From contig JBCFYV010011135.1 in assembly GCA_039000515.1 (NCBI GenBank), positions 19,550,178 to 19,614,177 on the forward strand: a stretch of DNA of 64,000 bases, in the 5' to 3' direction. Positions 3,801 to 57,400 of the stretch are shown here, piece by piece; the first letter of the stretch is position 1; each line of letters begins with the position of its first letter. The stretch comes from Timema cristinae (lineage: Eukaryota > Arthropoda > Insecta > Phasmatodea > Timematidae). The notes under the pieces were generated by a model, which had not been told where the DNA came from, searched no databases, and was given only the letters and a program-made list of their open reading frames with translations. Both the position numbers and the translations under genes were made by a program.

Positions 3801-6800
3801 ATTCCTCTAAATTCCCACCAACCTAATCCTTATAGGCTCGGATTCCTCTCTGGTAGGATATATTGTTTAAAATGAAATATATATATTCTGGTATGAGCCA
3901 GATAAAGCTGCTCCTTCTATTGATCTTTCTCCTTCTGGTCAGATATATTGTTTAAAATAAAATATATCTTCTATCTATTAAAATAGCATAGATTCTAACG
4001 ATATTAGTAATAATATACAAAATTCAGTCCATCACTGTGAAATGGAGTGATAATGTTACTTGTAGGGTCAGCAAGTGTATACATTACTGTGGGCCTTGGC
4101 AAACTGGTGTGCAATAATACATTCAGGCTCAGTGAGGAAGGCAATGGGAAACTTCCTCACTCCTTATTTCCCTAGTACGCTTCACCAGTATTGGCTATAC
4201 TCTACAGAAGATGATGGAACTGTTGAGTACCCAACCAAATTTACAAAAAAATAACCCAGTAGCATAATTATTACCTCTATGTATAACTTGAACTGATGAT
4301 AAGACAAAGTGAACAAAACAAATTTTGATAGATAATATAAAACCTGAGACACCTGGATAATGATAATACCGGGTACAACTTTAGATTGATTTTTAGGTTC
4401 AATACTGCATGATTGAATCAACATTCCTCAATATCTCGCACTTTACAATCGTTAAATCCCCGCAATGGTGTCCATGGTTACACAACAAATAATATATTTT
4501 AAACATTTAAAACTTACATCATCAATTTACACAGAAATTATCGGTTTGCTGGACCGCATAAATAGGCAGACTATGATTTTGTAAGCGGTGAAAAGTCATC
4601 TCAAGCTGTAAGCTATTAATCACTCTGAGAGCACACCATGTGATCTTGATATCAATATAAAATTAGCCACCTAAGTTAATTCACTATCTCAGATGTTCGT
4701 GTCTTTGACAATCAAGATATTACTGTATTTTGTAAAAAAATAATGAACAAGAGTATCAATGTAAAGATCTGATGGTTTTTCTACACTTTTATTACTATAG
4801 TTCATCACATATCTATTGGGGAAAGAATAATATATAGTTCGCTATATACGAGTAAATATTAGACTTTATAATATTGTGTAACATCATACAAAAATAAAAA
4901 GTTTAGTGCAGAAAGTTAAACAATGTTTTGACTATGTGCTAGGTTTTTCCAATTGTATTTATGAATATACACTTAGGCAACATCTTTGGGTTTATAGCAC
5001 TTTCCTGAATAATTTTGCCCTCACTTACTCACTATATGCCATAAGGAATTAGAGAGCTAGTTGCCGCACCTACACAAGTAAGCCACCTATCCCTATTTTG
5101 AGCTATTTCTTTACAGTCCATCTCATTACAGTTATTTACTATCTTGAGCTAGTTATTTCAAGTCCATCTCATTACAGTTCATTACTATCTTGAGATAGTT
5201 CTATCCAGTCCACCTCATTACACCCTATCCCTGGCCTGATCTATTTCTTTCCATTCCATCTCATTACACTTCATTCCTATCTTGGATAGTTCTATCCAGT
5301 CCACCTCATTACAACCTATTCCTATCCTGATCTAGTTCTTTCCAGTCCATCTCATTACAAATTCATTTATATCTTGAGCTAGTTCTATCCAGTCAACCTC
5401 GTTACAACCTCCCCCTAGCCTGAGATAGTTCTATCCAGTCCACCTCATTACACACTGTACTTTTCAAATCTATTCTAATGTTATCCTCACAAATTTGTCT
5501 CTATCCTGCCAATGGTCTCTTGCCATTGTGTTTGCCGGTCAATACTCTAAGAACGGTTCTAGATGTGTCCACTAAAGCTGCGTGGCCTGCTCACCATAAT
5601 ATACTAGACTTGATTATCCTTACAATATCTAGTGATGAGTACAATCTATGTAATTTATTATTATTCTACCAATAGAGGCTTTAATGTAAACACTGGCCAT
5701 AAGAACGCTAAACAATGGTGAATAGGAGGACAGGGTTAAGATAATACTGTATATTTAAAATAAACATTTAGGAAAAAAAAAGCTTGGAATATATAAAACT
5801 GGATTTAAAACTACACTTCCCCTTTTTATTAAAACCAGACCTATTGAGACCAAATTTTATTGCGTGGGTACACCAATGCAAGCTGTAACCTGTTAAAGTT
5901 CGTAAAATATTATAGATTGAAATATAAACATAACATTATAAAGTAAAAAAAAAAATTGTTTTATAAAACCTACATAATTTCTGAAAAATCTATTATATTC
6001 ACAAAAGGGCTAACAAGCATTATCGCTCATAGTCCTTACCACCTTATAGTAAAATTAACTTCCTATTACTGTTGGGTCACTCATTTTCATATTGAGGTTG
6101 ATCTCATTCGTGTGTAGTCGTACCCAAGTCTGTCATGAGAGCATATGTTTATTCAACCGACCATTACTTTTAGTCTCTACAATTGGATGCATGTATCATG
6201 GTATCATAAGGTGTCATTTTTAATTTAAAAGAATATGATATTTGGATGTGGCTATATCCGTATCTAACAACTATATAAGCTTGTTTATTTAATCCCTCTG
6301 TTAAGCAAATTCGTAGAGTTGTAATTATTGTAAAATTAGTAACATAAAACCCTCTTGAGTCAAAAATGTCTGTGTTACTTGATAGCTCTTAAATTTATTT
6401 TGTTTTTATCACCACGTCTTACTATCTGTCCAGGTTATACGTACATGTACTAAATATGCAACCGAATTAAGGATAAGGAATGATGCATTTCAAGGAATTG
6501 TACCAGTATTTGCATAGAGAGAGAGTGGAAAATACATTTTGTAAAACCCTACCGGGATACAAGCCCCTATTTTCCAGTAAATGGCAGTTTAGACTAACAT
6601 GACTCTTTGTGCCATGCGGCCACAGAAATATGTGAGAACTTAATTGATCACTCATATATAACTGATGATTTACTCACGTCCGTCACAGACTCTGCCTTAA
6701 AATATAAGTGAATAATCACCCTGGGCACAGGATGAATCCTGGATGGCTAAATGGTTATAGCATTGGCTAACTAAGACAAAGGTCTCAGACTTGACTCCCG

Positions 6801-9602
6801 TGTCAAGATATCATTTTTCAATATTTAGAGAATACATTTATCTTCGACTTTGGCTATTCTTCAAATGATTCAAGCCTCACATCTGCTAATCCTTATATTT
6901 TAAAAAGTGATCTTAATATACCCTAATAATTAGAATAAAATAATTTTCTAATCTTCTAATGCCGAGTTCTAATACTGGTCTCGATAGGTATTTTTGCTAT
7001 AATTTATTCTTAGTAAATGTAGGTAAGGTAGGAATTTTAATTAAATTAATATGGTAAAAATAAGAAAGATGGTATCTAAGGATGGATTACCAAAATTTGT
7101 TTAGGTGGGTTTATAAGGTACGCGAGAAACAATTTATTGTATTTACAGATTTTTAAGCAGAACAGATTTTTGATCAAAATAAATCAAATATTGATTCATA
7201 AATATAAAATTTTTTTTTTCATATTTTGACCTTAATAATTCGAGAATATCTGTCGATGATGTCCTGGAAATTAATGACAACATTTCTCTTCATTAAAAAG
7301 TTTATCATCTAATCTTGCTATTCTTATGAAAGATATTTAACATCATTTAATCATCATGTGAAGAAAATGTTTTTACTAAAACCATATTTTATTTATTTTT
7401 GCCAAACAAATGTTTTACTATAAAAACTGCAAATGTACTGGTCTTTTCTCACGTCCCCTGCATCCATTCTTAAAGTACTTAAGTACTAATTATTAGAAAG
7501 CTATTTAGTTGTCGGGGCGGGGGGGGGGGGGGGGGGCGCACACACAATGCACATGGATGGAGTCATAATTAAACTATCCCCGTTACATGCAAACAAAACT
7601 ATGGGATCTTTTCGCTTAGTCCACATTTACGCATATGCGGGATCAATTATTGTTCTCCTTAGTTTCAACAACAAAGATAGGTTATAATTATAAATTGATA
7701 TATTTCATTATATTTTATATAGAAAATTCTTCCCGTAAAAGATACGAGTCATTGAGTTATGTAGGAAAGGTATGTATTTGTAAAGATTCCGATTATAATA
7801 TTGGAGTGATAAAATATATTTTTTACAGATCAACGTTGATTACACCATCAACCACTAAGCGCTATAGTTTATTAGTGAGAGGGAAAGGAGATCTGAAACC
7901 ATGGTTGTTGATTTGTTGTAACACATGTTAATGTTGCTGGTGTTTACGTCCATAAGCTAAATAATTTAACTCAAATTAAAAAAAAAAATAGAATACATCA
8001 GTCAGACTCTTTTCACATAATTGTAAATAATCCTTCACACTCGCTAAGCTTATATCAGAATTTACTATTTAGCTATAAGAGTCCCCGGTTTACTCCTGGG
8101 ATTTTTGAAAAAAAAAAATGTTTTTCAGAAAATATTTTGTTCATTTTGTTTATTTGTGGTAGTTAATATGCACTTTCTGAACCCATTTAAATCAACACAA
8201 ATATAATTATTATTTTGATTAAATCTATAACATAAATAACACCCAGCTCTCAACAGTTAATTGATCACTATGAAAGGGTATGGTAAAAATAAGAAAGAGG
8301 GTATCTAAGGATGTATTACCCAAATCTTTTTAAGGTGGGGATATAAGATACGCGAGAAATAATTAGTGTATTTACAGATTTTAACAGGTTTATCTAACAA
8401 AGGGCGTAGGTTGGGTAAATTTTGAATAAAGTTAAAATTTATGAAGGAACAACTTGCTCCAGTATCGATAAGTCCAAAACATGAAACACCTATAATATCA
8501 ATTTTAATGATTGTATCCAAGGTACATGGCATGTATTTGCTGGCAGCCGGGGTTCAATCCTCGGTCCCGGCACAGATTTATCTGATTAACAAACCCTTCC
8601 TTCACCTCTGACAAGACATCTTGTGAACGTGGGGAATGCCAGGCCTCCACCGTGGTTCGGATTCCACGTTAAGCTGTAGGTCCTTCATTTCATCTCACAA
8701 TCACCCTACCATTATACATTAGCGTAAGTGCGTATAACCCAAATGGGTAGTAAGACATGGTGCAAATAATAATAACAATAATAATAATAATTAATGGCAT
8801 GTATTTGCGGTCCCCAGCTAAGCAATGTCTCTGCTGGTGCACTACTAGATTTTTGACCTACACTGACTATATTTCTATGAGGCCCAAAAATTACCCATAC
8901 TCTATCTGATAAAGCTTTCACAGTGGTGGTCGCTTTCATGTTCCTAAGGGGAATTATCACAACCAATTTAGAAAAACCATCAATTAGATTCAGAACTCAG
9001 GTATTCCCACTGGTAGAACGAGTGATAGGACCTACGAGATCCACAAACACAATATTCCACGGGTTATGAGCGACATCTTCAGAGTGTAGCCCAAAACAAG
9101 TGTTCTGAGAGGGCTTGGCCCACTATTCATCAAAGATAACATTTTCGGCTATGCTAGGAATCAAACCCCGAGCTCTAATTTTGTAGACTGACAGGATAAC
9201 TAATGAGCAATGTAACTAACCATTAGGGAATGTGACTTCCATATTCACAGTGAGGATTTAACGGCTGGGGGACAGTTATTTATTTATGTTCGATAATTAA
9301 GTTATTTTGTAAGTAGGAATAAACTATCGGGAATACCTCAAAGCAGATGGGAACAACACTAAAGTGAACCTGAAAGAGACAGGGTGTAATAAAGTAGACT
9401 GGATATAGCTAGCTCAAGATATGTTGTATCAGGTGGACTGGATAGAACTAGCTCAAGATATGTTGTATCAGGTGGACTGGATAGAACTAGCTCAAGATAT
9501 GTTGTATCAGGTGGACTGGATAGAACTAGCTCAAGATATGTTGTATCAGGTGGACTGGGTAGAACTAGCTCAAGATAGAGATATGATGTAATAAGGTAAT
9601 TC

Positions 9603-9700
<98 letters not shown>

Positions 9701-12700
9701 TACTAGCACCGAGTATTAATATACGTTTGGGTTGAACGGACGCTAATGTTAAAATGTAGGGTGACAGTGAGATGGAAAGGAGGGCCTACAGTTTAACGTG
9801 TGATCCGAACCACGCTTGAGGCCTGGAATTCCACACATTCACAAACTGTGGTTAATACACGTCTTGTCAGATGTGAAGGAAAGGTTTGGCAATCAGATAA
9901 ATCTGTGCCAGAACCTAAGATTGAACCCCGCACACACGAGGTCACCTGGTCATTCCTAATGCCAAAGAGTAAGTAAATATTTCGATATAATCAGTTTGTT
10001 TGAAAATTACAATTTAAATACTCAAAATAGTTAATAAAACTAGGAAAATATTCTCGCGAGGAAATCAAAGGAAAATTCTATCAAACGGTTATATTAGTGT
10101 ACAAAATAAACTCACAAAGAAAAAAAAGTTGTATATCATATCTCTAATATTAACTCAATCATCTGTTAAGTTGGATCTCCGGGAAGATTTGCTCCTGAAA
10201 TGGGCACCATAAACGACAAGACCATGCTGTTCCCCTCTTCGCCACCTCTCAGCCAACCCATAGACCCTCTGACTATCTGCAATAAATCTCAGATCCCTGC
10301 AAAATGCCAAAGGAGCAAGACTTGCGCATGCCCGCACATCGAGTCTATAGACATGGGCTTGGTCGTGGATTTGATTGTTGTCAACAATGAAGGTAAGTCA
10401 ATTTCTAACAATAGTAGACTTTCTAAACATAAAGTTAGAGCTTATCTTGAACTATATAGAAAATGTTAATATTTGGAATAGCAGGGAAAAATCTAAACAT
10501 GATTTTAAGAGTAATAAACAAATGGTATAACACAATCTAATAAACTTTTTTCATATTATATTATTTTTTTTTCCCTCATAAAAACAAGTATATCATCTTA
10601 AAATTCAAAATAAAGAATCTTCTAAAAATATGATGCAGAAATAATGTTTGTTTAGATATTCGAAACCTTAGCTCAGTCGGTAGTGTGTATACCTACTTAA
10701 CTAATGGTCCCAAGTTTGATCCCCGCCATGGCCAAAAAATGTATCATTGATGAAAATATTGGTCTAAACTTTTTCATTGATAAATTAATGGCCGGAGACT
10801 GGATGTTGTGACTTTCCTAGTCTTAATTTAGATTATAATTTATAGGCAGCTACAACAGGGCTAGCAAGCTGGTAGGTTGAAAACATATGGCCTGAATAAA
10901 AATCTGACCCAGGCGACAGACCGGAAACAGTATTAAATTTATGTAAATGTTAGACCATAAATATTAAATACCTGAACTAAACTAAATTTAATCTTAACCG
11001 TATGGTAGAATGATTTCGTCCTCTAAGTAAGAATATTAAAAAATTTGAAATTTTTAAAATTTGGTATTGGGAAATAGGGTGTCTTAGAGGATATAGACAT
11101 AGAAAAAACCTAATAGGGTGGTTAGCCGGCAGGTATGAATACCAATTTCAAATATACAAATAGGTCTTAAAATTTAATATTTCAAATTTGTATTTGTTAA
11201 AATGGGTTAGGGGGTTCAAAAACCTTTCAAAACTAGCATATATCTATCCTTTCACTAAAATAAAACAACTTACAATGGGGGCATAAACTTAAACTCTACA
11301 GGAAGACTAAGGGATAGCCCCAAATGTAAAAAAAAAAAAGAAAAAAAAGTCTGATAATTATGTCAGTATTAAGGTCTATGTGTATATCCCTGGGGATGGA
11401 ATCGAAATAACTCTGTTCGTGGTCCATATCTAAATATATTTATTATAAGCCTACCACTACCCTTATTAAATTCAAATACGTTTACTTTTATGGGAATTTT
11501 AAAACGAAAATTCGCTAAAAATTTTATGAGAGTTTTTTTAAAATTATATTTTACATTATTAACAACACAAAATATTTGCCTTTTGGTAAACAATTCGTTC
11601 ATATATAGTTAACTGAGTCATTTTTAAAAATTGTAAAATTTCCGAAATTGTCTCTCGATTTGTTTAAATGATTGATTTTTTTTTAAATATTAAATACATA
11701 TAAAAATGTGCCAACGAATTTGTTCAAAATGGGTATGCAGTTTATTTTCTTAAAATACAAATAATTTTGTGTATTTTATTAAAGATTTTTTTAAAGTAAT
11801 AAAGAAATTTCAAATTTTAATAAAGTTTTTTTAATATTCCTTGTGGTTTTGTTCACAATTGTTATCAGGGAACCATTTTACATGTTATACAATAATTTAT
11901 ATTTGTATTTTCAAACTAATTAATAGGTAACCCAATTTTAAAAATTCGGTATCTTTTAAAAAATATTTGAACAGAAATGTTAGAAATCATATATATCATA
12001 ATTATTAACTGTGATTAACAAAATAATACTTTAGTCTTTTGAATAAAAATTTACTTCAAGAACGTTTATTATAAACATTTTTTTTTAAATATCTGTCCCA
12101 TATTATAACAATTTTTATTGGAGCGTTTGTATTATTTTGTCATAACATACAGTATAAATAAACTTTGAACGTTGCTAAGACGTATAAACAAACATACATG
12201 GTTTATCCCAGTAAAAATACATGTACTGGCAGAATATTTGATTTGAGCATATACATAATTTAATGTTATTTAATAAATATTATTATTTTAATATTTTACC
12301 CCGTCTAAATTCCCATCCAATTTTTCCGCAAATTTATATTTCTAGTATAGGGTGGAAGAAAATAGAGGTTTAAGTAGATCTTCCTGCACTCAATAGCAGA
12401 GGAATGGGACAAACTTTCAGTGAAAAGCACCTAAGAGTATGTCTGTAAATATGCACCAGTGAAAAAGGAGGAGGTCACATAAACTATTATTCATATACGC
12501 TGTACTCATCATTTCTGGGTAAATAATAATAATAATAATAATAATAATATTTAGCACCGCGTCTTACTACCCATTCAGGGTTATACGCTTTAAGTACTAA
12601 TTACGCTAATGGATTAAGTATTAGGAAGGTTGAATTAGAGGAAGTGATCCCGCATTTGCGAGGAGAGAGAGTGGAAAACCATTTAGGAAAAACCACCCCA

Positions 12701-15700
12701 GTTCACCCGACCGAGATTCGAACCTCAATCTCCCCGTCTTCAGCAGTCGAGCTCAACACGACATGCGCGTTAGCCAACCACGTCACCGAGGCGGGTTTCT
12801 GGGTAATTAAATCTCAAATGATACACTGTGCTAATGATAGAAACCAGAAACTTGTTCATGATAATTACTGACATATCTAATTGGAAGAAACCAATAAATA
12901 TTGAGAAAACCTAGATTCAAACGAGAGGGAAACATTATAATAGACTTTAAAATGATAAAAGTGATAAGTTTGTAATGGGGATGAATCTAGTTCAAAATTA
13001 AGAATAGGGTGTAATGAGGTGGATTGTCTGTAACTATCTGAAGTTAGGGATAGGGTATAATGAGGTGGGATGAATATAATTAGCTCAAGATAAAGATAGG
13101 GTTATATGAGTTGGATTTGATTGAACTAGCTCAAGATAGTGATAGGGCGTGGTGGATATAATTATCTAGAGATAGTGATGTGGTGTAATTAGGGGTACTG
13201 GATTGAGCAAGCTTTAGATAAGGATAGGGTGTAATTTGGTGGACAGGATAGAACCAGCTATAGATATATATAGGGTGTAAAAAAGTGCACTTGATAGAAA
13301 AAGCTTTAGATAAATATAGGGTGTAATTAGGTGAAAAGGATAGAACTAACTTAAGATAGCGAGATGGTTATGTTGATATAGCTAGCTAGAAATAGAATAG
13401 GGTGTAATGAGACGCACTGGATGTAGCTAATTATAGATAGTGATACGTTGTAATTACTTGGAATGGAAAGTACTAGTTCATTATAGAGATATGGTGTAAT
13501 ATGATGGGTTGGATGGAACTAGCTTATGATAGGGATAAGGTGTAATAAACGAGACTAGAAATAGCTAGCTAGAGATAGGGATAGGGTATATTGAGGTGTA
13601 TTGGAAAGAATTGGCTTTATGTAGGGATATTTTACATATTTTTGTAATTGAGGCAATTAAATTTACTGTTATTATTATTATTAGCACCGCGTCTTACTAC
13701 CCGTTCGGGTTATACGCACTTACGCTAATGTGTAATGGTAGGGTGATTGTGAGATGAAATGAAGGACCTACAGTTTAACGTGGAATCCGAACCACAGTGG
13801 AGGCCTGGCATTCCCCACATTCACAAGATGTCTTGTCAGAGGTGAAGGAAGGGTTTGGCAATCAGATAAATCTTTGCCGGGACCGAGGATTGAACCCCGG
13901 CCGCCAGCATAGAAGTCTGACACCTTACCCCTAGACCACCAGGTCACCAAATTTACTGTTCATTATGCTATATAGTAGTTACAAAATGTTTGTAAGAAAC
14001 GTCGCTTAGACTCTCATATTTACATTCCTTTTGTAAAAAAAAATAAATACCTTTAAGTTTTATATGTGTGTACGCATTGAGAAGTGTTGAAGACCTTTGT
14101 AAAAAATGGGCAATGTTTTTAAGAGGTTTTATATTTTTATAAATATAGATTTCAAAAAAATTTTAACATAAGCTCTAACTAAATAAATAATTAATTCATC
14201 AACCTTAGCTTAATAAAATTTATGTGTTTTAGCTGACATAAAACTTATCCATAAATCTCATATTATCTTAAAATTTCCTTTTGTGAACATAACAAAACAA
14301 TACTTTATTTGATAGAGGACCTCTATATATAGATTTTTAAACTTTTTATCCATTATTAGACGTAGAAATATTTTAAAAGGGCGTCGTTGAATTTTTTTTA
14401 AATTGTTTAAAATTCAAAATTGAAGCATAAACTAGTCAGAAAACCTTTGATAATTTATTTACATTTTTCTGAAAAATATAGTTTTAAATATCAAATACCC
14501 TTTTAAATTATTCAGGACTTCTGAGCATCTGAAACGCGTTTTGGTGCCCTACAGGTGCCTGCAGGTGGGATGGAACTGTATGCAAGTAAAATCCAGTGTT
14601 TTTGCACTTTTTATGGTAAAACATTTTTATTTTGAAAATAAATACTAATATTTCTCCAGTACAAAAATATAATTTTATTTTATTTACATGGTGACCTAAA
14701 AATGTCTTGAATATCGGTCAAATGTGTTCTGGAATTTAATTACAACATTTAATTTTAATTTTAGAAATTTAGTTAGATAATGCCAGCATGCTCATGATAG
14801 ATATTCATGTACTGTACATATCGCCATGTGAAGAAAATTAATATTATATATATTATATATTATATATATTATATATATATTATATATTATATATATAATA
14901 TATTATATATTATATATATATTATATATTATATATATAATATATATTATATATATTATATATTATACATATATTATATATTATACATATATTATATATAT
15001 ATTATATAAATATATTATTTATATATAATATATATATTCCAAATTAATTTTTAGCCATAAGAATATTAATAAAATATAAACCTTTATATATTTTACATTT
15101 GGTTTGACAGAAACAAATGATGTAAATAATCACCCCATGCATCTCCACGGCCATTCCTTCTTTGTCCTTCTAATGGGACGATTTCAAGAAAAATTCGTAT
15201 TTAATGAGAAGACTATCACCCAAATGTACGCTACAGGAATGTTGGGAGAAAAATCTAAACACCAACCCCCTCTCAAAGACACGATAGTAATCCCCAGTCA
15301 TGGATTTGCAGTAATCAGATTTTACACAAACAATCCAGGTAAGTAAGTCTACTAATGAAATAGGAATATAAATTCCACTATAGACACAGTCGTCTCTGAA
15401 TAAATATTTCAATTAAATTAATTACAGTTTGAAAAATGACAGTTACATCAATGGAACTCTGGGAAATAAGCTAAACGGATCTTTTACCTCACATAACCAA
15501 ATAAGTTTTAGGGTGTTCTGAAACAAGGGGATTGGGAAGATATTTGATTCATTAAGTGTATAATTTACTGAGGATTGGAATACATTACATATTGATGAGT
15601 TGCATATCTTATCAGAAAAAATCTTTAGGATAATCAGGTCCGGTAGATTACATCGGTCAGAGTATACAGTGGTATTGGATGAATCTAGAGCCGGGTTCAG

Positions 15701-15825
15701 ACTATTGACTGGCAAAACCAGTGGTAAGAGACAATTGAGAAGACCCAGACCTAGAAGGGTGGATAACATTAAACTGGACCTGAAAGTGATCTGGTTTAAT
15801 GAGGTGGACTGGGTAGAACTAACTC

Positions 15826-15863
<38 letters not shown>

Positions 15864-16345
15864 TATATAAATATATATATAAATATATATATATAAATAT
15901 ATATATATTTGCATACTTATTTTATTACTGCTGTTCCTTATTTATTAGGTCTATTAGAAATTAAGGTGAAAATTCATGTCTTTTAGATACAAAAATAAAT
16001 ACAAATTAAGTGAATTGATATACTTTTGGGAATTATACATACAAATTGTTTGTTGAAAAAATATTGACTCTCCTTATATTCTGGTTAAAAAATCTATTGT
16101 AAAATCACTACCACCCATTGTTCCAGCATACTTAAATTAAATAAACAAATATGTATTTTGCACAAACTTTGTTTTCTAATGACATTGAATGTATTCTTTG
16201 TTTTCAGGTTATTGGTTATTTCATTGTCACTTCCTTTTACACCAGTCACTGGGATGGCGATGGTTTTTAAAATGGGGACCAATATATGCTACCTCCTGTA
16301 CCTCAAAACTTCCCAAAATGTGGCAACTTTATGCCCACCATATAA
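617..16345 (+). CDS. Laccase-like multicopper oxidase, gene 1 (3' half, five exons, 5' end outside window)
   Basis: Secreted-type multicopper oxidase that couples oxidation of phenolic or catecholic substrates to reduction of oxygen. Five exons join in frame through consensus GT/AG sites: 617-810, 3440-3626, 10171-10392, 15111-15338, 16208-16345. The joined product holds the end of cupredoxin domain 2 ([20 protein letters not shown]), then domain 3 with HPMHLHGH (type 2/3 copper ligands) and HCHFLLH (type 1 Cys plus type 3 His). The first exon starts with two bases of a split codon, so at least one exon lies upstream of the window. A second MCO gene starts 20 kb downstream on the same strand, which suggests a tandem family. 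Oddity: the last exon needs two frame changes (near 16246 and 16275) to read through to the expected GNFMPTI end and TAA at 16343-16345. All other exons and splice sites look intact. Family assignment is firm; the laccase subfamily is not. Confidence 0.9.
811..3439 (+). other. MCO gene 1 intron, 2.6 kb
   Basis: Very AT-rich, above all 2200-3420. Apart from the weak pogo-like repeat at 1970-2075 I see no gene, RNA or repeat. 1233-1439 contains a minus-strand open frame with no recognisable family. Confidence 0.7.
1970..2075 (+). repeat. Possible pogo-like terminal repeat
   Basis: Repeats of ACTCGACA/AACTCGAC (CAATCGAGTCTCGGAATCTC, GATAACTCGACATTCCGTAT) recall pogo-type ends. No matching partner or transposase is seen. 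Confidence 0.3.
3440..3626 (+). CDS. MCO gene 1 exon: linker between domains 2 and 3
   Basis: A long T tract and CAG end at 3439, and donor GTAAGT starts at 3627. Phase 0 in, phase 1 out. The product runs from [20 protein letters not shown] to NLNNYYPFR. The pattern LNP..C......ICV..L and the later YYPF match the inter-domain stretch of insect laccases. Confidence 0.85.
5085..5680 (-). repeat. LINE C-terminus with about eight tandem repeats of its coding end
   Basis: On the minus strand 5680-5470 reads [14 protein letters not shown], stop, [13 protein letters not shown], then [13 protein letters not shown]. This is the 'GKRP.GRPR..W.DNI..DL' and 'DWI.LAQDR' end of insect non-LTR retrotransposons. 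From there to 5085 the segment coding for [14 protein letters not shown] is repeated about eight times with a period near 46 bp, in decayed form. Confidence 0.78.
6403..6560 (-). mobile_element. SINE-B relic
   Basis: The tail motif ATCACCACGTCTTACTATCT and body motif GAGAGAGAGTGGAAAATACA keep the SINE-B order with heavy divergence. Confidence 0.65.
7048..7165 (-). repeat. Second copy of the post-protease retrotransposon segment
   Basis: ATGGTAAAAATAAGAAAGAT, GGTATCTAAGGATGGATTAC and TACGCGAGAAACAATTTATT match 8280-8395 in the same orientation. A piece of the same decayed LTR element. Confidence 0.7.
7516..7542 (+). repeat. Poly-G tract
   Basis: GGGGCGGGG followed by an unbroken run of G, exceptional in this AT-rich DNA and able to form G-quadruplexes. 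Confidence 0.9.
8280..8525 (-). pseudogene. LTR-retrotransposon aspartic protease fragment
   Basis: The minus-strand frame holds [20 protein letters not shown], with the DTGAS active-site motif of retropepsins, followed by [20 protein letters not shown]. Its 3' part (8280-8395) is repeated at 7048-7165. Fragment only. Confidence 0.72.
8541..8793 (+). mobile_element. SINE-A copy, 5'-truncated, inside a gypsy relic
   Basis: It has the B-box-like GGGGTTCAATCC, the family body and the shared 3' tail ending in (AAT)n. It is flanked by an exact 15-bp target duplication ATGGCATGTATTTGC at 8526-8540 and 8794-8808. The A-box end is missing. Confidence 0.93.
8809..9120 (-). pseudogene. Ty3/gypsy-type integrase fragment
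   Basis: The minus-strand frame reads [22 protein letters not shown], stop, [20 protein letters not shown], then [20 protein letters not shown]. This is the amino half of an integrase catalytic core: the W..I..D.VGP block with the first catalytic Asp, the D.FSK block and the FG.P..I.SD block. One in-frame TGA. It lies upstream of the protease fragment in reading direction, the reverse of gypsy order, so the two pieces are rearranged. Confidence 0.8.
9395..9600 (+). repeat. LINE-end minisatellite, 39-bp period
   Basis: About five units of 39 bp (13 codons) read [13 protein letters not shown] in one open frame and finish [13 protein letters not shown], stop. An (AAT)n tract follows at 9604. 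The units are nearly identical, so this is the youngest of the arrays. Confidence 0.85.
9604..9698. repeat. (AAT)n meeting (ATT)n
   Basis: An AAT run switches to an ATT run near 9646. It fits the tail of the plus-strand LINE array meeting the tail of the minus-strand SINE-A. Confidence 0.92.
9646..9952 (-). mobile_element. SINE-A copy, diverged
   Basis: Minus-strand copy. Its (ATT)n tail abuts the (AAT)n tract that follows the LINE-derived minisatellite at 9395-9600, so two tails meet head-on. The head near ACCAGGTGACCTC is partly lost. Confidence 0.8.
10171..10392 (+). CDS. MCO gene 1 exon: start of cupredoxin domain 3
   Basis: The acceptor (TTAAG, ending 10170) has a weak pyrimidine tract, but it restores phase exactly: C from the previous exon plus TT gives Leu. 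Donor GTAAGT starts at 10393 (phase 1). It encodes [20 protein letters not shown], then PSSPPLSQ, a Cys-rich [15 protein letters not shown] segment, and [14 protein letters not shown], matching the 'IN...F..P..PLL' and 'G..V.L.L.DE' blocks of laccase domain 3. The ATG at 10200 is an internal Met, not a start. Confidence 0.83.
12523..12795 (-). mobile_element. SINE-B copy
   Basis: On the minus strand the head is ACCCGCCTCGGTGACGTGGT, with a tRNA-like B box (GAGGTTCGAA), a body with GAAAACCATTTAGG (plus-strand reading), and the tail shared with SINE-A. Exact target duplication TTTCTGGGTAA (12512-12522 and 12796-12806). Confidence 0.94.
12955..13640 (+). repeat. LINE-end minisatellite, about 46-bp period
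   Basis: Roughly fifteen decayed units with the consensus core GGATAGAACTAGCTCAAGAT followed by AGGGATAGGGTGTAATGAGG. Period varies from about 40 to 47 bases. Confidence 0.8.
13671..13948 (-). mobile_element. SINE-A copy, full length
   Basis: On the minus strand it starts GGTGACCTGGTGGTCTAGGG (A-box region), then GGGGTTCAATCC (B box), the body, and the tail GTAGTAAGACGCGGTGCTAA with (TAA)n. It has an exact 12-bp target duplication AAATTTACTGTT at 13659-13670 and 13949-13960. It serves as a family reference here. Confidence 0.95.
14845..15045. repeat. (AT)n-rich microsatellite with TATTATATA variants
   Basis: Almost pure A/T built from TATATTA and TATATAT words, in the intron before the HPMHLHGH exon. 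It ends about 65 bases before the splice acceptor. Confidence 0.95.
15111..15338 (+). CDS. MCO gene 1 exon: HPxHLHGH copper-binding exon
   Basis: Acceptor TTTGACAG ends at 15110 and donor GTAAGT starts at 15339 (phase 1 in and out). It encodes [28 protein letters not shown] supplies one type 1, one type 2 and one type 3 copper ligand in this family. Later residues [22 protein letters not shown] match 'KDTV.VP..G....RF...NPG'. The exon lies between an (AT)n-rich stretch (14845-15045) and a LINE relic. Confidence 0.93.
15600..15830 (+). pseudogene. LINE C-terminal fragment with a single terminal unit
   Basis: The frame from about 15601 reads [20 protein letters not shown], then [27 protein letters not shown] and [10 protein letters not shown]. 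This is the conserved end of an insect LINE ORF2, with one copy of the NEVDW.EL unit and no tandem repeat. An (AT)n tract follows at 15829-15907. Confidence 0.78.
15829..15907. repeat. (AT)n microsatellite
   Basis: An AT dinucleotide run with ATAAAT interruptions directly after the LINE fragment. Confidence 0.95.
16208..16345 (+). CDS. MCO gene 1 terminal exon with HCH motif and two frame breaks
   Basis: Acceptor TTTTCAG ends at 16207 (phase 1). It opens with [13 protein letters not shown], holding the type 1 copper Cys and flanking type 3 His residues. The next conserved block, GMAMVFKMG with the axial Met, is one base out of frame: only TC lies between CAG (16243-16245) and ACT (16248-16250). 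The final block [18 protein letters not shown] is again one base out, at the G run 16274-16277, and runs to TAA at 16343-16345. Both breaks look like single-base losses. Without correction the frame ends at a TGA near 16371. This is either a young pseudogene or uncorrected indels in the assembly. Confidence 0.85.
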
Positions 16346-16503
16346 TTGTATGATAATACCTAGTTGTATGGCATTTTAAGATAAAATGTAATCTGCCAAT
16401 AACGGGCCCTTCGTTAAATGTAAATTTGTCTTAAACGGAAACATTTTCCGTAACCTTGACTCTAGGGATGAGGAACATATTAAATTCCTTCAACTAAACA
16501 GAA

Positions 16504-16509
16504 AATAAA
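16504..16509 (+). terminator. Possible polyadenylation signal of MCO gene 1
   Basis: An AATAAA hexamer lies about 160 bases after the inferred stop codon. In DNA this AT-rich such hexamers occur by chance, so the call rests on position only. Confidence 0.3.
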
Positions 16510-17129
16510 AATAATCCTTTTAACGGAAATTTTCCAATGTTCCTTAGTGCATCGTTTTAAAAAAAAATTAAGCACCTTAAACATTATAAAGATATTTTTT
16601 TCCTCTAATTCTTCAGTTATTTTAAGAAGAGTATAAATGTGAGGTTGGGTATATTTTCATTTTCCTGCGTGGTTCTTTTTATCCCTTGCTTACACAATTG
16701 TGTATTGTAGTTACTGTGTATTATTATATCTGCTCTTCTTAATTTTTACGTTAATGACTTGTCAATCACCTTTAGAATTCAGCTTTTAACAGTACATCAC
16801 TAATTGTAATTTCTACATCCAGTAGTGTTTCTAGATTGTGGCCTGGGACAGTTTATTGTACAAATAATTTGTTTTCCACTCTTGTAGCTTCATATGCCTT
16901 AACTTGACCCTATGACAGACACAAAATCCATTCCCCAACCATTAACTAATCACTATGAAAGGGTAAACCCACATTTCATCAAAGATAAATTTTTAGGCCA
17001 TGCTGGGAATCCGATCTTATACTTCAAGTCAATAGAGAGACACAAAGTTAAGATGTCAGATAATAAAAACTATATTGAAATTAAATTGTTTGTTCTTTTA
17101 GGAGATTTTACTCAATAAAGGCTCTAGTC

Positions 17130-17475
17130 CTACATTTTTTACTCTAGTCTGAAAGTTGTCATTGTGGCTTCAGAGACAAGAGTTAAGCTTGATCTTTACA
17201 TGAAAGAGAAAGTGATTCTAGCGAATGAGCTAGATTAGTTGTCTTTTAAACAAATCATAAAGTTGTTCAACTTCGGGAAAATTCAAGTGTACGAGTCTTA
17301 GAAAAGAAAATGGAAATTTGAAGCTGTGGGAAAATTGTGATATTTAAAAAATAAAAAGAGCATTTAAGAAAACTGCAAATGAAGACATTAATGAAACAGT
17401 TTAGGAGTGTTTTGTCAGTATCAGAGCAAACAATTACTGCGTTTTGGGTTCTAGGGTCCAAGAATATGCACGACT
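17130..17475 (+). pseudogene. pogo/Tigger-like transposase amino-terminal fragment (decayed)
   Basis: With stops the frame reads KVVIVASETRVKLDLYMKEK, then SFKQIIKLFNFGKIQVYESL EKKMEI and KKTANEDINETV, stop, ECFVSIRANNYCVLGSRVQE YAR. Order and spacing resemble the CENP-B/Tigger DNA-binding domain ('L..K..I......G.S...IA...NI.KSTV..I.KK' and '...V..WF...R....PVSG...QEKA'). No catalytic domain follows. Confidence 0.6.
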
Positions 17476-17639
17476 ACTGGATTTTTTTTTTTAGAAAAAT
17501 GAGTTTTTTAACTTCGGTCTAATGTTTATATGTGTTGACTTATAGTGGGAATAAAAAATGTGGAAAGTATTTTATTTTATCTCTATTGCCTACATGTCCT
17601 TGATTTAATTTTGATAGTACACCTTTATTGAAAGTAAAC

Positions 17640-17705
17640 ATGGCTTTAGCGAAAAATATCCTAGACTTTTACGATTCCGATTAGCGTAGGTTTTACTGTA
17701 AATAG
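17640..17705 (-). repeat. pogo/Tigger-like terminal repeat
   Basis: On the minus strand it reads ACAGTAAAACCTACGCTAAT CGGAATCG, close to the CAGT.AAACCTCGCTAATCCG ends of Tigger elements. It closes the fragment at 17130-17475; the left end was not found with confidence. Confidence 0.5.
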
Positions 17706-18030
17706 TGTTATGGTAATGGGGCTGTATATAATTAGCTCAATGTAAGGATAGGGTGTAATGAGGTGGACTGGATAGAGCTGGATCAAGATAGGGATAGTGT
17801 TTAATTAGGTGAACTGGTTAAGACCAGCTTAAGATATAAAAATGGTGTATATAAGTAGAATGTATAGAACTAAATCAAGGTAGGAATAGGATGTAATGAC
17901 GTGGTTTGGATATAACTATATTAAGAAAGGGATATTATGTATTGAGTTAGCTTGGATAAAACTAGCTCAAGGTAGGGAGAGTATGTAATTAGGTGAACTG
18001 GATGGAACTTATTCTATGAAGGGATAAGTG
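17705..18030 (+). repeat. LINE-end minisatellite, decayed
   Basis: About seven units such as AATGAGGTGGACTGGATAGA and GCTGGATCAAGATAGGGATA. Same family as 12955-13640. Confidence 0.75.
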
Positions 18031-18139
18031 GTGGAATTGTGGAATTTTGGCACTGAATTTTCAATGCCTAATGAAGTATAGTAATCAAAGTAAGTAAGTA
18101 AGCTACTCAACAAAATATTACTACTATCTACCAGGTCTA

Positions 18140-18757: not shown

Positions 18758-19032
18758 ATTATTATTAGCACCGCCTTTATTACCCGTTCGGGTTATACGC
18801 CCTTACGCTAATGTGTAATGGTAGGGTGATTGTGAGATGAAATGAAGGACCTAGAGTTTAACGTGAAATCCGAACCACGGTGGAGGCCTGGCACTCCCCA
18901 CATTCACAAATGTCTTGTAGAGGTGAAGGAAGGGTTTGGAAATCAGATAAATCCGTGCCAGGGACCAAGGATTGAACCCCGGCCGCCAGTACAGAAGTCT
19001 GACACCTTACCCTAGACCACCAGGTCACCGAC
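18758..19032 (-). mobile_element. SINE-A copy
   Basis: Full-length minus-strand copy with target duplication TATACTTCGTAA (18746-18757 and 19033-19044). It carries several single-base deletions relative to the copy at 13671. Confidence 0.92.
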
Positions 19033-22987: not shown

Positions 22988-23239
22988 TACCCGCCTCGGT
23001 GGCGTAGTTGGCTAACACCCTTGTCGTATTGAGCTCAACTGCTGAGGACGGGGAGATCGAGGTTCAAATCTCGGTTGGGTGAACTGTGGGTGGTTTTTCC
23101 TAAATGGTTTTCCACTCTACTTCCACGCAAATATGGGTTCACTTCCTCTAATTCAACCTTCCCAATTCCTAATACATTAGCGTAATTAGTACTTAAAGCG
23201 TAAAACCCTAACTGGTAGTAAGACGCGGTGCTAAATAAC
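22988..23239 (+). mobile_element. SINE-B copy
   Basis: Plus-strand copy beginning ACCCGCCTCGGTGGCGTAGT, with B box GAGGTTCAAATC, body and shared tail GTAGTAAGACGCGGTGCTAA. Target duplication ATAATATCTATA (22976-22987 and 23240-23251). Confidence 0.94.
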
Positions 23240-23815
23240 ATAATATCTATAACTCAAATTTAATTGTACTGAGTAATTAGCATTGCGCATCTAGCACCAA
23301 AATAATGTTTATTCTTATTTTTATTTTTAGATATTTAACGTACACTTTTTTAACTGACTGATTATATAATCATACAAAAATATATATATGAGCGAGAGCT
23401 AAAGGCATACTAATCTTTCAGGGAAAGGTATTTTCACATACATTTAAGGGTTATTTCACATGCCACATCTAACATGGGACCAATGGTTTTACTGCCCCTC
23501 CAAAGGAGGTTTTGCTACACACTTATATCACTCAATAAATAGATTTTGACCACATTTGGGTTTGAAACAAGACCATCGAGGTCAAAATATTATTTATAAA
23601 TATTACTAAAAGCTTTTATTCTTTATAGATATGTGTTTTCTCTCCCTTTATACCGTGTGAATGAATTGAGAATTTTTGGAAACAATTTTCTGAAACTATA
23701 TTTGGACCAAAAAAGAATTAAAAAAAAACAGTTTTATCTAAAGTGTTACATAACGAAGAAACTCATGATTTGTATGAATCCTGAAACATATAAAGGATAG
23801 TCAATATGTGCAGGG

Positions 23816-24320
23816 TCTATCTCGTGGCTCTTGAAGTAAGGTTCTAGCCTCAGAACCTTATGTTCTAGGGTTTAAAACCCACCGGGGTCAACGGATTTAT
23901 CTTGATCGATACAATTCCATAGCACAACTTCCCTCAGAGGGTAAGTAAGGCCATGAGTATAATATGGATTTTGGTGTGTAAAGTAACACCGGAAAATATG
24001 TGAAAATACCTTCTCCCAGGGATGGCCCGAGGAAAATTTTGCATCCAACAGGATTGCTTTTTGGTGCCTCCTGTATAACTGGGTGATAGTAATCAATATG
24101 AAAATAGTCCCCAAACTTAACATAATCTTATCAAACTCAGATTACTTTAGGTAAAGTTGGTAGTTTGTTTAGCGCCCCCCTTGAACCGACGCCCCGGGCA
24201 ACCATGCAGTTCACCAGCCCTTAAGCCGCCCTGTCTTTCTCAGCAAAATGGTTAGGCCTTTTCATTCTCACTCATAGAAATGTCCGAGTGCATTTGATAT
24301 GAGTTGGTTCAGAACGTGCA
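23816..24320 (+). mobile_element. SINE-C-like copy, diverged
   Basis: A tRNA-like head (CGTGGCTCTTGAAGTAAGGT, then GGGTTTAAAACCC) is followed by TCCATAGCACAACTTCCCTC, GAAAATACCTT and ATTCTCACTCATAGAAATGT, in the same order as 26875-27150 and 27585-27850. Boundaries and possible internal insertions are uncertain. Confidence 0.6.
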
Positions 24321-24954
24321 CGTTAAAAACCTCAAATTAATAATATAAAAAAAATAATCTAAGGCTTTGTTTGGGGTGTTATATCGAATGTAAGGGTTAC
24401 TATAGGGTTATATCATAAACTAAGTTAGAGGATCCTGAAAATACAAAACTTTAATAGGTTTTAAGACCTCTTTGTAGAACAAGAGGGTGATAGGAGAATA
24501 ATATTAATAAGAGTTTAAAGGAGGTTGGGCTTCAGATTAAAGATTGGGTGGAAGTGTTTCAGAATAGGGTTGACCATTGAGCCTACGTGATGGCACCCAT
24601 AATGTTTCAAACTCTTTAAAAGCAGAGAATTATTTTGATATTTACAATTTTACAAATGATTATAAAGAGTCATTTTTTGCTGTACAATCTGTAAAATCTA
24701 ATCGTTTAGCCTCCCCATACCTTTATAATTTTAATAGAGAGCGCTCTTATTAATTTTACATAATCTATAATAGTATTTTACACCAATTATATTGAACAGC
24801 TAGCACGTGGATAATATATTTGTATCATCTAGTTTTAACTAATGCTGTTAAGAGATTATGTTTTGACTACACGCCAATATTGTAATTCATGTGCTTTTCT
24901 AAGATTAGGCTCGTCACCTAGTTTCTTTTTTATTCCAGGTTGTGTTCAAATTTG

Positions 24955-27874: not shown

Positions 27875-28153
27875 AGTGTCATCTGGTGGTCTAGGGTAAG
27901 GTGTCGTATTTCTGTGCTGGGGGTCCGAGGTTCAATCCTCAGTCCCGGCACAGATTTATCTGATTACCAAACCCTTCCTTCACCTCTGACAAGACATCTT
28001 GTGAATGTGTGGAGTGCCAGACCTCCACCGTGGTTCGGATCCCATGTTAAACTGTATGTCCTTCATTTCATCTTAAAATCACCTTACCATTACACATTAG
28101 CGCAAGTGCGTACAACCCAAACGGGTAGTAAGACGTGGTGCTAATAATGATAG
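27875..28153 (+). mobile_element. SINE-A copy
   Basis: Plus-strand copy from GTGTCATCTGGTGGTCTAGG to GGTGCTAATAATGATAG, flanked by TAATTAAATAAAAA (27861-27874 and 28154-28167). The head has lost one G of the A box. Confidence 0.92.
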
Positions 28154-29402: not shown

Positions 29403-29610
29403 AATTAATTTCAGTAAAAAATAATAATTTTGAATTGGAACCCTAAAAAAGAATAATTTTATTTTACTGACCTACAAAATGAGGCATGGCTTACGTCAAA
29501 TATATACATATATTTTAATCAAAGTATCATTAAATACATTACTGTATATTATCATTGTAGACCATATTTACCATTAATACCCAAAAATAAACCACACCCG
29601 ATTTTAGGCA

Positions 29611-33984: not shown

Positions 33985-34033
33985 TTTACGATTCCTTTGG
34001 ATTTACTAATATACATATTTAACTAAATAATAA

Positions 34034-35576: not shown

Positions 35577-35840
35577 CCTTTTTTTTTATTGATATGGTTT
35601 TTTCTCTCATATACCTATTTGTCTGGAACCTTTTTTTTTTATTGATATGGTTTTTTCTCTCATATACCTATTTGTCTGGAACCTTTTTTTTTTATTGATA
35701 TGGTTTTTTCTCTCATATACCTATTTGTCTGGAACCTTTTTTTTATTGATATGGTTTTTTCTCTCATATACCTATTTGTCTGGAACCTTTTTTTATTGAT
35801 ATGGTTTTTTCTCTCATATACCTATTTGTCTGGAACCTTT
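35577..35840. repeat. Five-copy tandem repeat, unit about 50-53 bp
   Basis: A T run followed by ATTGATATGGTTTTTTCTCT and CATATACCTATTTGTCTGGA ACC is repeated five times. The 43-base body is unchanged between copies; only the T run varies, from about 10 down to 7. Confidence 0.92.
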
Positions 35841-36410
35841 TTGTTTGGTTTTGTTTAGTAAGATCCATCTTGATGGACATGCACACTAGTAGCATATAAT
35901 TAATGGTTGACTGGGATAATATTATATCTGGGTAAATAATTTTCCCAATATTTGGACTGTACCGTCCCAGGTGAAACACTTGGCTTGACAAATTTGCTCT
36001 GCCAGGTGAAGTACTTCCGTGATGACTGGATATTGGGATTACCAAAGAATGACACAATTAATACTTTATTGCTTTCAAAACTTGTTTAATATTTCCGTGT
36101 TATACAAACACTCACGTGTCTTCGTTAACGCATAACCACCAACATGTCGTTTACTTATATGCTAGTAGTACCTCTTGATGGCCAAACTCTCCTGGGCTCA
36201 AACCACCGACCTTCTAAGCCACGCTACGTTACACTAAACTGTTGCAATATAGAGGTGACCTCACAAACGCTTGAATCACAAGTAATTCAATATCGCAAAC
36301 AAAATATACAGTATCTAAAATAGGTAAATTGTGATTGTATTTTACTGCAATGTCTTTTATTTATCTTATTTATAAATAAAGGCACATTTTTACCAAAGTT
36401 ATATCTTCCT

Positions 36411-54400: not shown

Positions 54401-57400
54401 AACTTGTGCGAAAAATTGAAGAACAAGTGCGAAATGACCGCCGTGTGACGCTTGATGACCTTCACGAAAAATTCCCTGACATTTCTAGAAGTCTCCTTGG
54501 TGATATTGTGTCGGAAAAACTTGGTTACAAGAAGTTGTGTGCGAGATGGGTGCCCAGAATGCTCACACCGGAGCACCGTCAAAATCGCGTCACCACCGCG
54601 CGTGAATTTTTGGATCGTTTTGTACAGGAGGGAGAAGCTTTTCTGGACTCTATCGTGACAGGGGATGAGACGTGGGTGTGTCACTACACCCCAGAGACCA
54701 AAAGACAATCACTTCAGTGGCGTCATTCATCTTCCCCAGCCACCAAAAAGTTCAAGACAACCCATTCAGCCGTAAAAGTCATGGCATCTGTTTTTTGGGA
54801 CCGTAAGGGCGTCCTTTTGGTGGATTTTATCCCCAAAGGGACTACCATTAATGCAGAGGCTTAATGCAATACCCTAAAAAACTCAGAAGAGCCATTCAGA
54901 ACCGCAGAAGGGGAATGCTGACCCGGGGAGTCAGCCTCCTGCATGACAACGCCAGGCCCCACACCGCGCGAGTTTCACAGGAGCTGCTGACATCATTTGG
55001 ATGGGATATTGTCACCCACCCACCCTATTCACCCGACTTGGCGCCTTCGGACTATCACCTTTTCACTAAACTAAAGGAGTTTTTGGGTGGGAAACGTTTT
55101 TCCAACAATCAGGAGGTCGAGGAATCTGTGAAGAAGTGGCTGAAAGAGTTGGTGACAGAGGTCTATGACACTGGCATACAAAAGCTGGTGCCCCGACTAC
55201 TGAAATGTCTTGATCTCGACGGCGATTATGTTGAAAAATAGTATAATATATTTCTGAAGTATCCTGTGAGTTTCAATTAAATACAAGCATTTTTCGATTC
55301 TAAATAAATGTCGTAACCTTACTTTCTGGATGGCCCTCGTACATTATATTGTTAGTTTAATCTAAATTTGTTTTTAGCACCACGTCTTACTGCCAGTTCT
55401 GGTCATACTATTATGTACTAAGTGTGCTAATGGTTCTAGTGATTAGAAAGTTTTATTAATTAGAAAACTTGTACCAATATTTTCATGGAGGGTGAATGGA
55501 AGACAATTTTGAAAAAAAAAAAAAAACTCTCAGTACAACTGACCGAGATTTGAACCTCAATCTCCTCCTCATCAGCACCATTATGCCACCAAGGCAGGTA
55601 AAGTTAAAAGTTTACTTTTGTTAATACAGGGGTACCCACAAGGGAGTGGGGGGGTGGGGGGGGGGAGTCATGACGCAGAATGCGTCATTCGAATTTTTTT
55701 TTTGTGGGAGATTTACGAAACAAACTTGGAGGCATAAAAAATTATAACTAAGTTACAATAAATATTATTTTTTTTATTTTAAAAAAATGCATGTTTTGTT
55801 AGTGAAGAATGGAAGCAAACATTGAATTTTTTCTAAATAAAAATATTAATTGTAGGAAGTCAAATGTTCAAAGAGGACAAATCATGGTCGCCGACACTCG
55901 TGATAGGTGGCCCTAGACGGACGAATGACGTACCACAAGACCAGTGGCGCGCAAAATCGTTGTCATAGCGACGCATGAGACGCCAGCACTGAATGCGTAC
56001 TACAGGGCCATTCCGTGTTCCATATTCAGTGTGTAGTTGTCTAATATAGATGTTTGTGCTATACAAATTTTACAAATAGTTAATACTGACTTATAAAGCT
56101 AAGTAACATAATTTAGTTTGCTTGTTTTTATTGAGCATCGGTGTTTTAAAATGTTTTGTTGGAAATACATTATTGGGTATTAATAAAAACTTAAAGTTCC
56201 CTCGAATACCAAAGCAGTTCAAATATAAGTGTTTTGGGAAATCATGTGCAATGCTACAGTCAGGTACGACAAATGGTTAGAACACTTTAAAAACAATATA
56301 AAGTTATTTATCGTCTTCGCAAAGGAATAAGTTACTCTGCCGAATATAAGCCACAGCAACCAGGATTTCATCAAACCATTATTATTTCAATTTTTCATTC
56401 TTTACAAAACACAGTGTTGGTATTTTGATCCTTTCATTAAAATATTGTCTTAAAATATTAATTTAACCTAATTAGATTTGTATTATTTATTTAATTTCAA
56501 ATAAGTAATTTATTTGCAAACTGTAACATTTTTAGCCTTAGTCTATTTGTAATAAAATCTAATTACAATGACATTTTATTTGAGCTTGAAATACCTTTTC
56601 TTATCATTAATCATGTTTGTAGGGGGGGTTGAGTCATCATCCTGGGAGGATGGGGGGGAGGGGGGGAGCTACCCTGGTTAATGTGTTGGTAACACAAGTT
56701 ATCATTCCTTTAAATTTACATAAACCTTAATATTACATGTTTATGAATTTATCTACCCATTTACTTGTTTGTTGTAATAGTTATGTCTAAAATTAAACTT
56801 ATCCTTTTTGCGTAATAGTTTAATTGATTAATATAAATAGTCTTGATTAGAAATATCAATAAACTAAGAGCTCGAATAAGTTTATAAATCGTATTAGTTT
56901 GTGGGACTTGGTCTAGTATAAAGTTTCAAAACAAGTTATGTCCAATTAGATAACTCTCTGCCCCTAAGGAACTTGAAATTCAGGCTTCAGAAAGTATCCG
57001 TGTCATTAAAACCTAACCTGAGACATTTCGATCTAATCCATGTTCGGAAACCCTATCTATTTCAGAAATGTTTACATTTTCCACCTAGTGACATTTTAGC
57101 TTACCAACGAGTCTTGTAACTTCTGGTTTCTCAACTAAAAATCTTGTGTTTACGCCTTTTATCAACCATACGTACGTATACCACCCAGCCTCACCTTCCT
57201 CTAAATAAGATATGCTATGAGAAAATATAGACTTGACATAAACTATGCTCACTATGATGATATTTGCTCTTTACCTAGTTTAACTAAGCTATGGAAAAGG
57301 CTAGGATTGGCACAAATTATTGCCTGCTATTATTAGTTCTTGCCTTGAGATTTATCAGTGTTTGTACCTTTCCTCTCTTTCATACAGAACACATAATATT

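What the first reader, a model, noticed from the sequence alone, without database searches (positions are those of the whole stretch)
5085..18030. Minisatellites made from the C-terminal coding end of a LINE
Four arrays (5085-5470 on minus; 9395-9600, 12955-13640, 17705-18030 on plus) repeat a 39-46 bp unit whose translation is [14 protein letters not shown]. The same peptide occurs once, directly after the conserved LINE block GKR..RRP...VDNIKLDLK, at 15690-15825, and at 5680-5470 the LINE block runs straight into an array. So the tandem repeat seems to be grown from the last codons of a retrotransposon ORF, repeatedly or once and then spread. If the arrays travel with the LINE, the element has a variable-length repetitive C-terminus: the 9395 array is 39 bp, an exact 13 codons, and open throughout. 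A LINE whose protein tail is a minisatellite would be unusual. All copies lie within 13 kb, in introns of MCO gene 1 and just after it.
Basis: partly seen in the sequence, partly recalled or inferred. Interest (0 to 1): 0.75.

Follow-up and report, generated by a model that had tools for sequence, protein, structure and literature searches.

The report
Jumping gene with built-in tandem repeats
Four stretches of a repeated 46-base DNA word sit inside four decayed copies of the same insect (probably stick-insect) jumping gene, close to its end; at least two of them look as old as the copies that hold them, so the repeat probably travels with the jumping gene rather than lengthening its protein, an ordinary kind of repeat birth in an interesting place.

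Summary
The arrays are real: four arrays of a 46-bp unit (one re-amplified with a 39-bp period), at 5086-5452 (minus), 9385-9597, 12961-13629 and 17713-18031. All four lie inside copies of one LINE subfamily: LINE sequence precedes each, and LINE C-terminal codons (A, C, D) or a probable LINE tail (B) follow. Three sub-claims fail. The unit is 15 codons + 1, so an ideal array has stops in every frame: not a protein tail. The AAT tails belong to SINEs, one inserted into LINE copy C with a 12-bp target-site duplication. About 20 LINE codons still follow the repeat. Inferred origin: a GATAGG direct repeat, 46 bp apart in the LINE coding end, seeded the duplication. In arrays C and D, within-array unit distances equal between-copy flank distances, so these arrays seem as old as their insertions. 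Predicted proteins of Timema tahoe and T. monikensis carry two and three tandem units, so the array occurs in other Timema; the host is probably Timema. The host genome could not be searched. Verdict: new member of a known kind, a LINE-derived minisatellite, probably carried by its element.

The parts
5086..5452 (-). array A: 8 units of 46 bp with partly alternating subtypes (92-bp higher-order period)
   Evidence: TRF; wrap-around alignment; mean distance to own consensus 0.137
5020..5665 (-). LINE copy A holding array A: upstream block [14 protein letters not shown]...[20 protein letters not shown], downstream [20 protein letters not shown] and a GTAAG-like tail
   Evidence: tblastn of P0015 and others, E 1.6e-20; translation; downstream alignment
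9385..9597 (+). array B: four units with a 39-bp type junction (three of them identical), one unit with a 46-type junction, and a partial unit
9352..9384 (+). LINE block directly upstream of array B ([11 protein letters not shown])
   Evidence: tblastn matches 9352-9420, unit 1 included: E 3.5e-5 with P0016, 8.2e-5 with P0015, 2e-7 with the typed consensus
9598..9985 (+). SINE with (AAT)n/(ATT)n run inserted after array B, followed by a probable LINE tail CCTAATGCCAAAGAGTAAGTAAAT; possible 8-bp target-site duplication with one mismatch
   Evidence: SINE match 9740-9930; joined flank; duplication and tail read by eye
12961..13629 (+). array C: 15 decayed units of 46 bp, including two similarly shortened units 220 bp apart
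   Evidence: mean distance to own consensus 0.206
12895..12960 (+). LINE block upstream of array C ([17 protein letters not shown])
   Evidence: E 0.004; DNA distance 0.34-0.35 to flanks A, E and D and 0.295 to B, against 0.57-0.76 to random segments (alignments of 20 columns or fewer count as 1 in the random value, which raises it)
13629..13985 (+). LINE C-terminal end of copy C ([16 protein letters not shown] then HYAI**), split by a SINE at 13671-13948 with target-site duplication AAATTTACTGTT at 13659-13670 and 13949-13960
   Evidence: SINE
17713..18031 (+). array D: 7 decayed units of 46 bp (edges uncertain by about 10 bp)
   Evidence: mean distance to own consensus 0.190
17645..17712 (+). 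degenerate LINE block upstream of array D
   Evidence: aligns with the flanks of copies A (31/45) and C (38/58); not found by tblastn
18031..18100 (+). LINE C-terminal end and (GTAA)n tail of copy D
   Evidence: local score with A reached by 3 of 2000, and C-D score by 12 of 2000, random window segments
15459..15829 (+). LINE copy E of the same subfamily, cut inside the first unit by (TA)n: uninformative about the array
   Evidence: (15480-15821, E 1.6e-20 to P0015)
23674..24601 (+). LINE copy of another subfamily (GLQIKDWVEVFQNR) running to its C-terminal end without an array
   Evidence: (24386-24601 E 1e-6 with P0114; 23674-23817 E 2.5e-4 with P0071)
57012..57144 (-). possible very old LINE remnant without a visible array
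   Evidence: E 0.032 to 6; weak

Best explanation
A LINE subfamily, probably of Timema stick insects, carries a 46-bp minisatellite inside the last part of its coding sequence, about 20 codons before the stop and the (GTAA)n tail. Shown: the four arrays lie within LINE copies; the unit equals the LINE codons [16 protein letters not shown] less a few bases, with a period of 15 codons plus one base; arrays C and D are as divergent inside as the LINE copies are from one another. Inferred: a short direct repeat in the coding end (GATAGG at codons E-I-G and again at D-R, 46 bp apart) allowed the first duplication by slippage or unequal exchange; the array became part of a source element, where it puts a stop after DRDRV and cuts off the last ~20 codons, and was copied to new sites by retrotransposition. 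Afterwards copies evolved locally: A formed partly alternating subtypes, B lost 7 bp in one unit and re-amplified it, C and D mainly decayed.
For: 4 of 4 arrays have LINE sequence upstream; A, C and D have LINE C-terminal sequence downstream and B a probable tail. The array-less copy that can be read through (24464) is of another subfamily. Unit distances C-C 0.324, D-D 0.314, C-D 0.329 match flank distances C-D 0.316 and 0.345 (57-58 aligned columns each), so amplification in C and D did not clearly postdate insertion. The C and D consensuses differ from the typed reference unit, itself read from the window, at 1 and 0 of 46 columns (A 2, B 4). B and C share linked variants (0 of 500 shuffles reach the observed value; one of six pairs tested). 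Timema tahoe P0128 has the LINE block plus two units; T. monikensis P0164 has three. NEVD occurs in 6 of 9 proteins named as Timema and in 0 of 233 other fetched proteins, most of them without an organism name. Continuation into DRxxW is in 201 of those 233 and 1 of 9 Timema proteins. The short-direct-repeat origin is an established model (Haber and Louis 1998, as cited in PMC6947457, passages).
Against: Only one 64-kb window was read; the genome search did not complete. Linked shared variants were found for only 1 of 6 array pairs; A-B, A-C, A-D, B-D and C-D gave none beyond shuffles. Pairs with B do not fit simple decay: unit distance A-B 0.180 and B-C 0.251 against flanks 0.386 and 0.295. 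The flanks are short, so the distance match in C and D is rough. The GATAGG seed upstream is a majority reading of five decayed flanks (GATAG[G/T]G), perfect in none; a random 46-bp boundary in this window has 6 bp or more of microhomology with frequency 0.013, window repeats included, so it is suggestive only. Homogeneous arrays of insertion age could also arise during target-primed reverse transcription. The protein lists are capped (120 of 7951 and 120 of 1089 shown), the query contained DRDRV, and the Timema proteins are unverified gene models, one of which (P0002) has W at the DRDRW position.
Confidence: 0.66

Rival explanations
1. Independent expansion in place: every copy carries the same seed (direct repeat 46 bp apart), so arrays grew separately after each insertion.
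For: The seed fixes the junction, so equal periods need no common descent; B was clearly re-amplified locally (units 3-5 identical), and A has within-array distance 0.210, below its distances of 0.310 to C and 0.287 to D; nearest neighbours lie in the same array for 15 of 35 units against 9.6 expected, though permutations reach 20; only 1 of 6 array pairs shares linked variants.
Against: C and D show no excess similarity within the array over between arrays or over flanks; in the window every copy of the subfamily that reaches the site has an array (4 of 4); B's last full unit keeps the 46-type junction, so an older array preceded the 39-bp one.
Confidence: 0.2
2. Generated at insertion: the reverse transcriptase slipped repeatedly on the GATAGG repeat near the RNA 3' end during target-primed reverse transcription, giving each new copy its own homogeneous array.
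For: The array lies close to the 3' end where reverse transcription starts; arrays C and D look homogeneous at insertion.
Against: Linked variants shared by B and C suggest pre-existing unit diversity; no direct evidence of slippage.
Confidence: 0.1
3. A LINE protein with a variable repetitive C-terminus.
For: The 39-bp unit is open in two of three frames; two Timema gene models include units; 9 of 126 related proteins hold the larger C-terminal block twice, 31-95 residues apart.
Against: 46 bp is not a codon multiple and an ideal array has stops in every frame; unit 1 of B has a stop in the LINE frame and no LINE open reading frame precedes it; gene models are unverified predictions.
Confidence: 0.03

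Closest known systems
Minisatellites born from transposable elements through short direct repeats (Alu, SINE B1, MaLR; Haber and Louis model; passages of PMC6947457)
   Same: Unit bounded by a likely short direct repeat inside an element; array flanked by the element on both sides.
   Different: Here the parent is a LINE coding end and the array seems to be carried by the element to new sites.
LINE-derived satellites: PROsat and Pvc20 from L1 ORF2, Common Cetacean Satellite from the L1 3' UTR, HinfI/SCR1 from CR1 (table passage in PMC9659126)
   Same: Tandem repeat made from LINE ORF2 or 3' sequence.
   Different: Those are listed as satellite DNAs; this is a short 46-bp minisatellite of 5-15 units still inside LINE copies.
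Elements that carry a VNTR: SVA and LAVA (PMC4432496, start of abstract in a search listing); tandem repeats riding on a Xenopus MITE (title of Hikosaka and Kawahara 2004 in a reference list)
   Same: Tandem array that moves as part of the element.
   Different: Those are composite or MITE elements; here it is the coding end of a LINE, and carriage is inferred.

Membership tests
TE-derived minisatellite | unit homologous to part of a transposable element | tested here: met
TE-derived minisatellite | array flanked by the rest of that element | tested here: met
   upstream 4 of 4 (D weak); downstream A, C, D, probable in B
TE-derived minisatellite | short direct repeats at the unit boundaries in the parent sequence | tested here: inconclusive
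   majority reading GATAG[G/T]G upstream and GGGATAGG downstream (copy A), from decayed copies only
element-carried VNTR | array present at the time of insertion | tested here: inconclusive
   fits for C and D by distance comparison; not for B, partly for A; origin during insertion not excluded
element-carried VNTR | array present in most copies genome-wide | not testable with these tools
   The genome search unanswered 18 times; 4 of 4 informative copies of the subfamily in the window
LINE with reverse transcriptase | reverse transcriptase and endonuclease domains in full-length copies | not tested
   no copy recognised in the window reaches that far; Pfam gives no family above its cut-off for the C-terminal piece; LINE identity rests on recalled knowledge of the motif and on C-terminal relatives
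satellite DNA | long arrays at centromeres or heterochromatin | tested here: inconclusive
   arrays are only about 0.2-0.7 kb in this window; no genome-wide data

The most novel reading that the evidence does not exclude
A genus-wide Timema LINE lineage in which a frame-breaking 46-bp minisatellite has replaced the normal end of the ORF: the element kept moving with a protein ending at DRDRV and a variable-length non-coding 3' repeat, scattering VNTR loci and, in some genes, supplying exons.
Probability: 0.3. Interest if true: 0.5.

Novelty: new member of a known kind. Interest (0 to 1): 0.36.

Why it matters
It is a readable case of minisatellite birth in which parent sequence, likely seed repeat, arrays and later local turnover (decay, partly alternating subtypes, a re-amplified 39-mer) stand side by side in 13 kb. 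If the array moves with the LINE in Timema, a genus with sexual and parthenogenetic sister species (recalled), array length and unit order at orthologous insertions would give a direct test of minisatellite turnover with and without recombination.

Tried and rejected
Protein-tail reading: rejected for the 46-bp arrays by frame. AAT tail of the LINE: rejected by the 12-bp SINE target-site duplication in copy C. A standing satellite unrelated to the LINE: rejected by flanks on both sides. Clear unit-order inheritance between arrays: not found; linkage tests positive only for B-C. Other collections: the array D DNA had no match in the phage records and an 18-base piece of the unit none in viral contigs. 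Paper searches (two returned no paper) listed no title about this Timema array, but they cover only the open library and those terms, and most listed papers were not opened; Repbase/Dfam were not available. The Timema douglasi centromere paper PMC11691646 (passages only) reports centromere motifs of AACCT, 63 to 384 bp and about 1400 bp; the terms '46-bp' and 'minisatellite' occur 0 times in its main text.

Dropped rows: one search left out pseudo-units A_1 and A_2 and units with more than 12 gaps, leaving 35. In one search the upstream pairs E-D (1/1 aligned) and B-D (8/12) carry no information and were not used. Corrected on checking: plus-strand units at 2-11 edits are 24, and the 39-bp unit is open in two frames, not one; neither changes the odds.
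Full report
Observation. The four arrays exist where reported. A wrap-around alignment to the 46-bp consensus gives array A 5086-5452 (minus), B 9385-9597, C 12961-13629 and D 17713-18031, with 8, 5, 15 and 7 usable units. Hits of 11 edits or fewer to the unit core occur only in the arrays (8 on minus, 24 on plus) and once at copy E; three shuffles never scored below 12.

What the arrays sit in. Translations show LINE peptide on both sides of array [45 protein letters not shown] before it, and [20 protein letters not shown] with two stops after it. Relatives from a protein search (P0015, P0117 and others) end ...LYCSPNIVRVIKSRRMRWAGHVARMGE...[48 protein letters not shown]; P0015 matches copy A (5665-5408) and copy E (15480-15821), each with E 1.6e-20. 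Upstream of B the block is short ([11 protein letters not shown]). C keeps [17 protein letters not shown] before and [16 protein letters not shown] after; D keeps RDKWWNCGILALNFQ after and a degenerate block before that only a DNA alignment shows. Downstream flanks of A, C and D match one another better than nearly all random window segments (4, 3 and 12 of 2000 random segments reach the scores of A-C, A-D and C-D). So 4 of 4 arrays are internal to LINE copies, with B's downstream side only probable.

The tail. In copy C a SINE with (AAT)n tail is inserted at 13671-13948 with a perfect 12-bp target-site duplication. The LINE sequence resumes after it as CATTATGCTATATAGTAG, matching CTTATGGCATATAGTGAGTAAG in A and CCTAATGAAGTATAGTAATCAAAGTAAGTAAG in D. 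The AAT runs therefore belong to SINEs, of which two families sharing a 34-bp end are dense in the window, and the LINE ends in a GTAA-type tail.

Coding. The unit is 46 bp, 15 codons plus one. An ideal array reads [15 protein letters not shown] then stops, and has 12 stops per frame in six units; the real arrays A, C and D have 9-29 per frame and B 3-11. The 39-bp unit is open in two of three frames, but in the LINE frame its first copy has a stop and almost no LINE frame precedes it. The arrays are not a LINE protein tail.

Age and spread. Between-array unit distances are A-C 0.310, A-D 0.287 and C-D 0.329; within C 0.324 and within D 0.314. Flank distances are A-C 0.34-0.37, A-D 0.30-0.31 and C-D 0.32-0.35, on 45-65 aligned columns. 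In C and D the units of one array are as different from one another as from those of the other copy, and the copies' flanks are equally different: the arrays look homogeneous and already present when the copies were made. A (0.210 within) and B (0.072 within) have had later turnover, and pairs with B have unit distances below their flank distances (A-B 0.180 against 0.386; B-C 0.251 against 0.295). B's last full unit keeps the 46-type junction, so its 39-bp units grew out of an older 46-bp array. Linked variants are shared by B and C beyond 500 of 500 shuffles but not by the other five pairs, so unit-by-unit descent is only weakly supported.

Other species. Nine proteins named as Timema were among those listed. 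T. tahoe P0128 holds the LINE block and two units; T. monikensis P0164 holds three, one in another frame, ending DRDRV. DRxxW continuation is in 201 of the 233 and 1 of the 9 (P0002). The lists were capped (120 of 7951 and 120 of 1089), the query contained DRDRV, so its selection is biased, and these are unverified gene models. The host assignment to Timema is inference from this shared LINE.

Mechanism. The array junction GGGATAGG|GTGT joins what precedes W in the LINE end (GGGATAGG-TGG, copy A) to what precedes the unit (majority GATAG[G/T]G of five flanks, perfect in none). GATAGG copies 46 bp apart would seed the duplication as in the Haber and Louis model, quoted in PMC6947457 (passages). 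A random 46-bp boundary in this window has 6 bp or more of microhomology with frequency 0.013. This step is inferred.

Known kin. TE-derived minisatellites and LINE-ORF2-derived satellites are established (PMC6947457 passages; PMC9659126 passages with part of its table). The finding is a new member of that kind, of moderate interest because the array seems to be carried by the LINE.

Limits.

Noticed in passing
29609-33986: Large tandem array (TRF periods 64, 96 and 160; a 32-bp basic unit by eye) with an internal long copy at offset 2086: ten successive 100-bp blocks starting at 30001 to 30901 are 100% identical to their partners 2086 bp on; recent segmental duplication or assembly artefact.
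   Followed up: partly
8538-8747, 13671-13948, 18783-19021, 27885-28125, 38128-38368, 44972-45213, 50038-50278 and others: Two dense SINE-like families (15 and 11 matches in 64 kb, the queries themselves included) that share a 34-bp end next to an (AAT)n tail; the second is at 12555-12795, 22990-23230, 49158-49399 and others. ARAGORN finds no tRNA in the window.
   Followed up: partly
54154-55241: Mariner-like transposase: Transposase_1 and HTH_48 hits at 54154-54864; it seems to go on in another frame to 55241 (by eye).
   Followed up: partly
P0008, P0009, P0010, P0011, P0012, P0013, P0014, P0017, P0025 (proteins without an organism name): 9 of 126 related proteins carry the larger LINE C-terminal block (GKRPLGRPRRRW.. 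to AQDRDRW) or part of it twice, 31-95 residues apart; the search ranking favours such duplicates.
   Followed up: partly
35577-35846: 53-bp tandem repeat, 5 copies at 96% match, each with a T-run.
   Followed up: no
P0164 (Timema monikensis): A protein named lysozyme by its source starts with three LINE-array units; possible exonisation or gene-model error.
   Followed up: no
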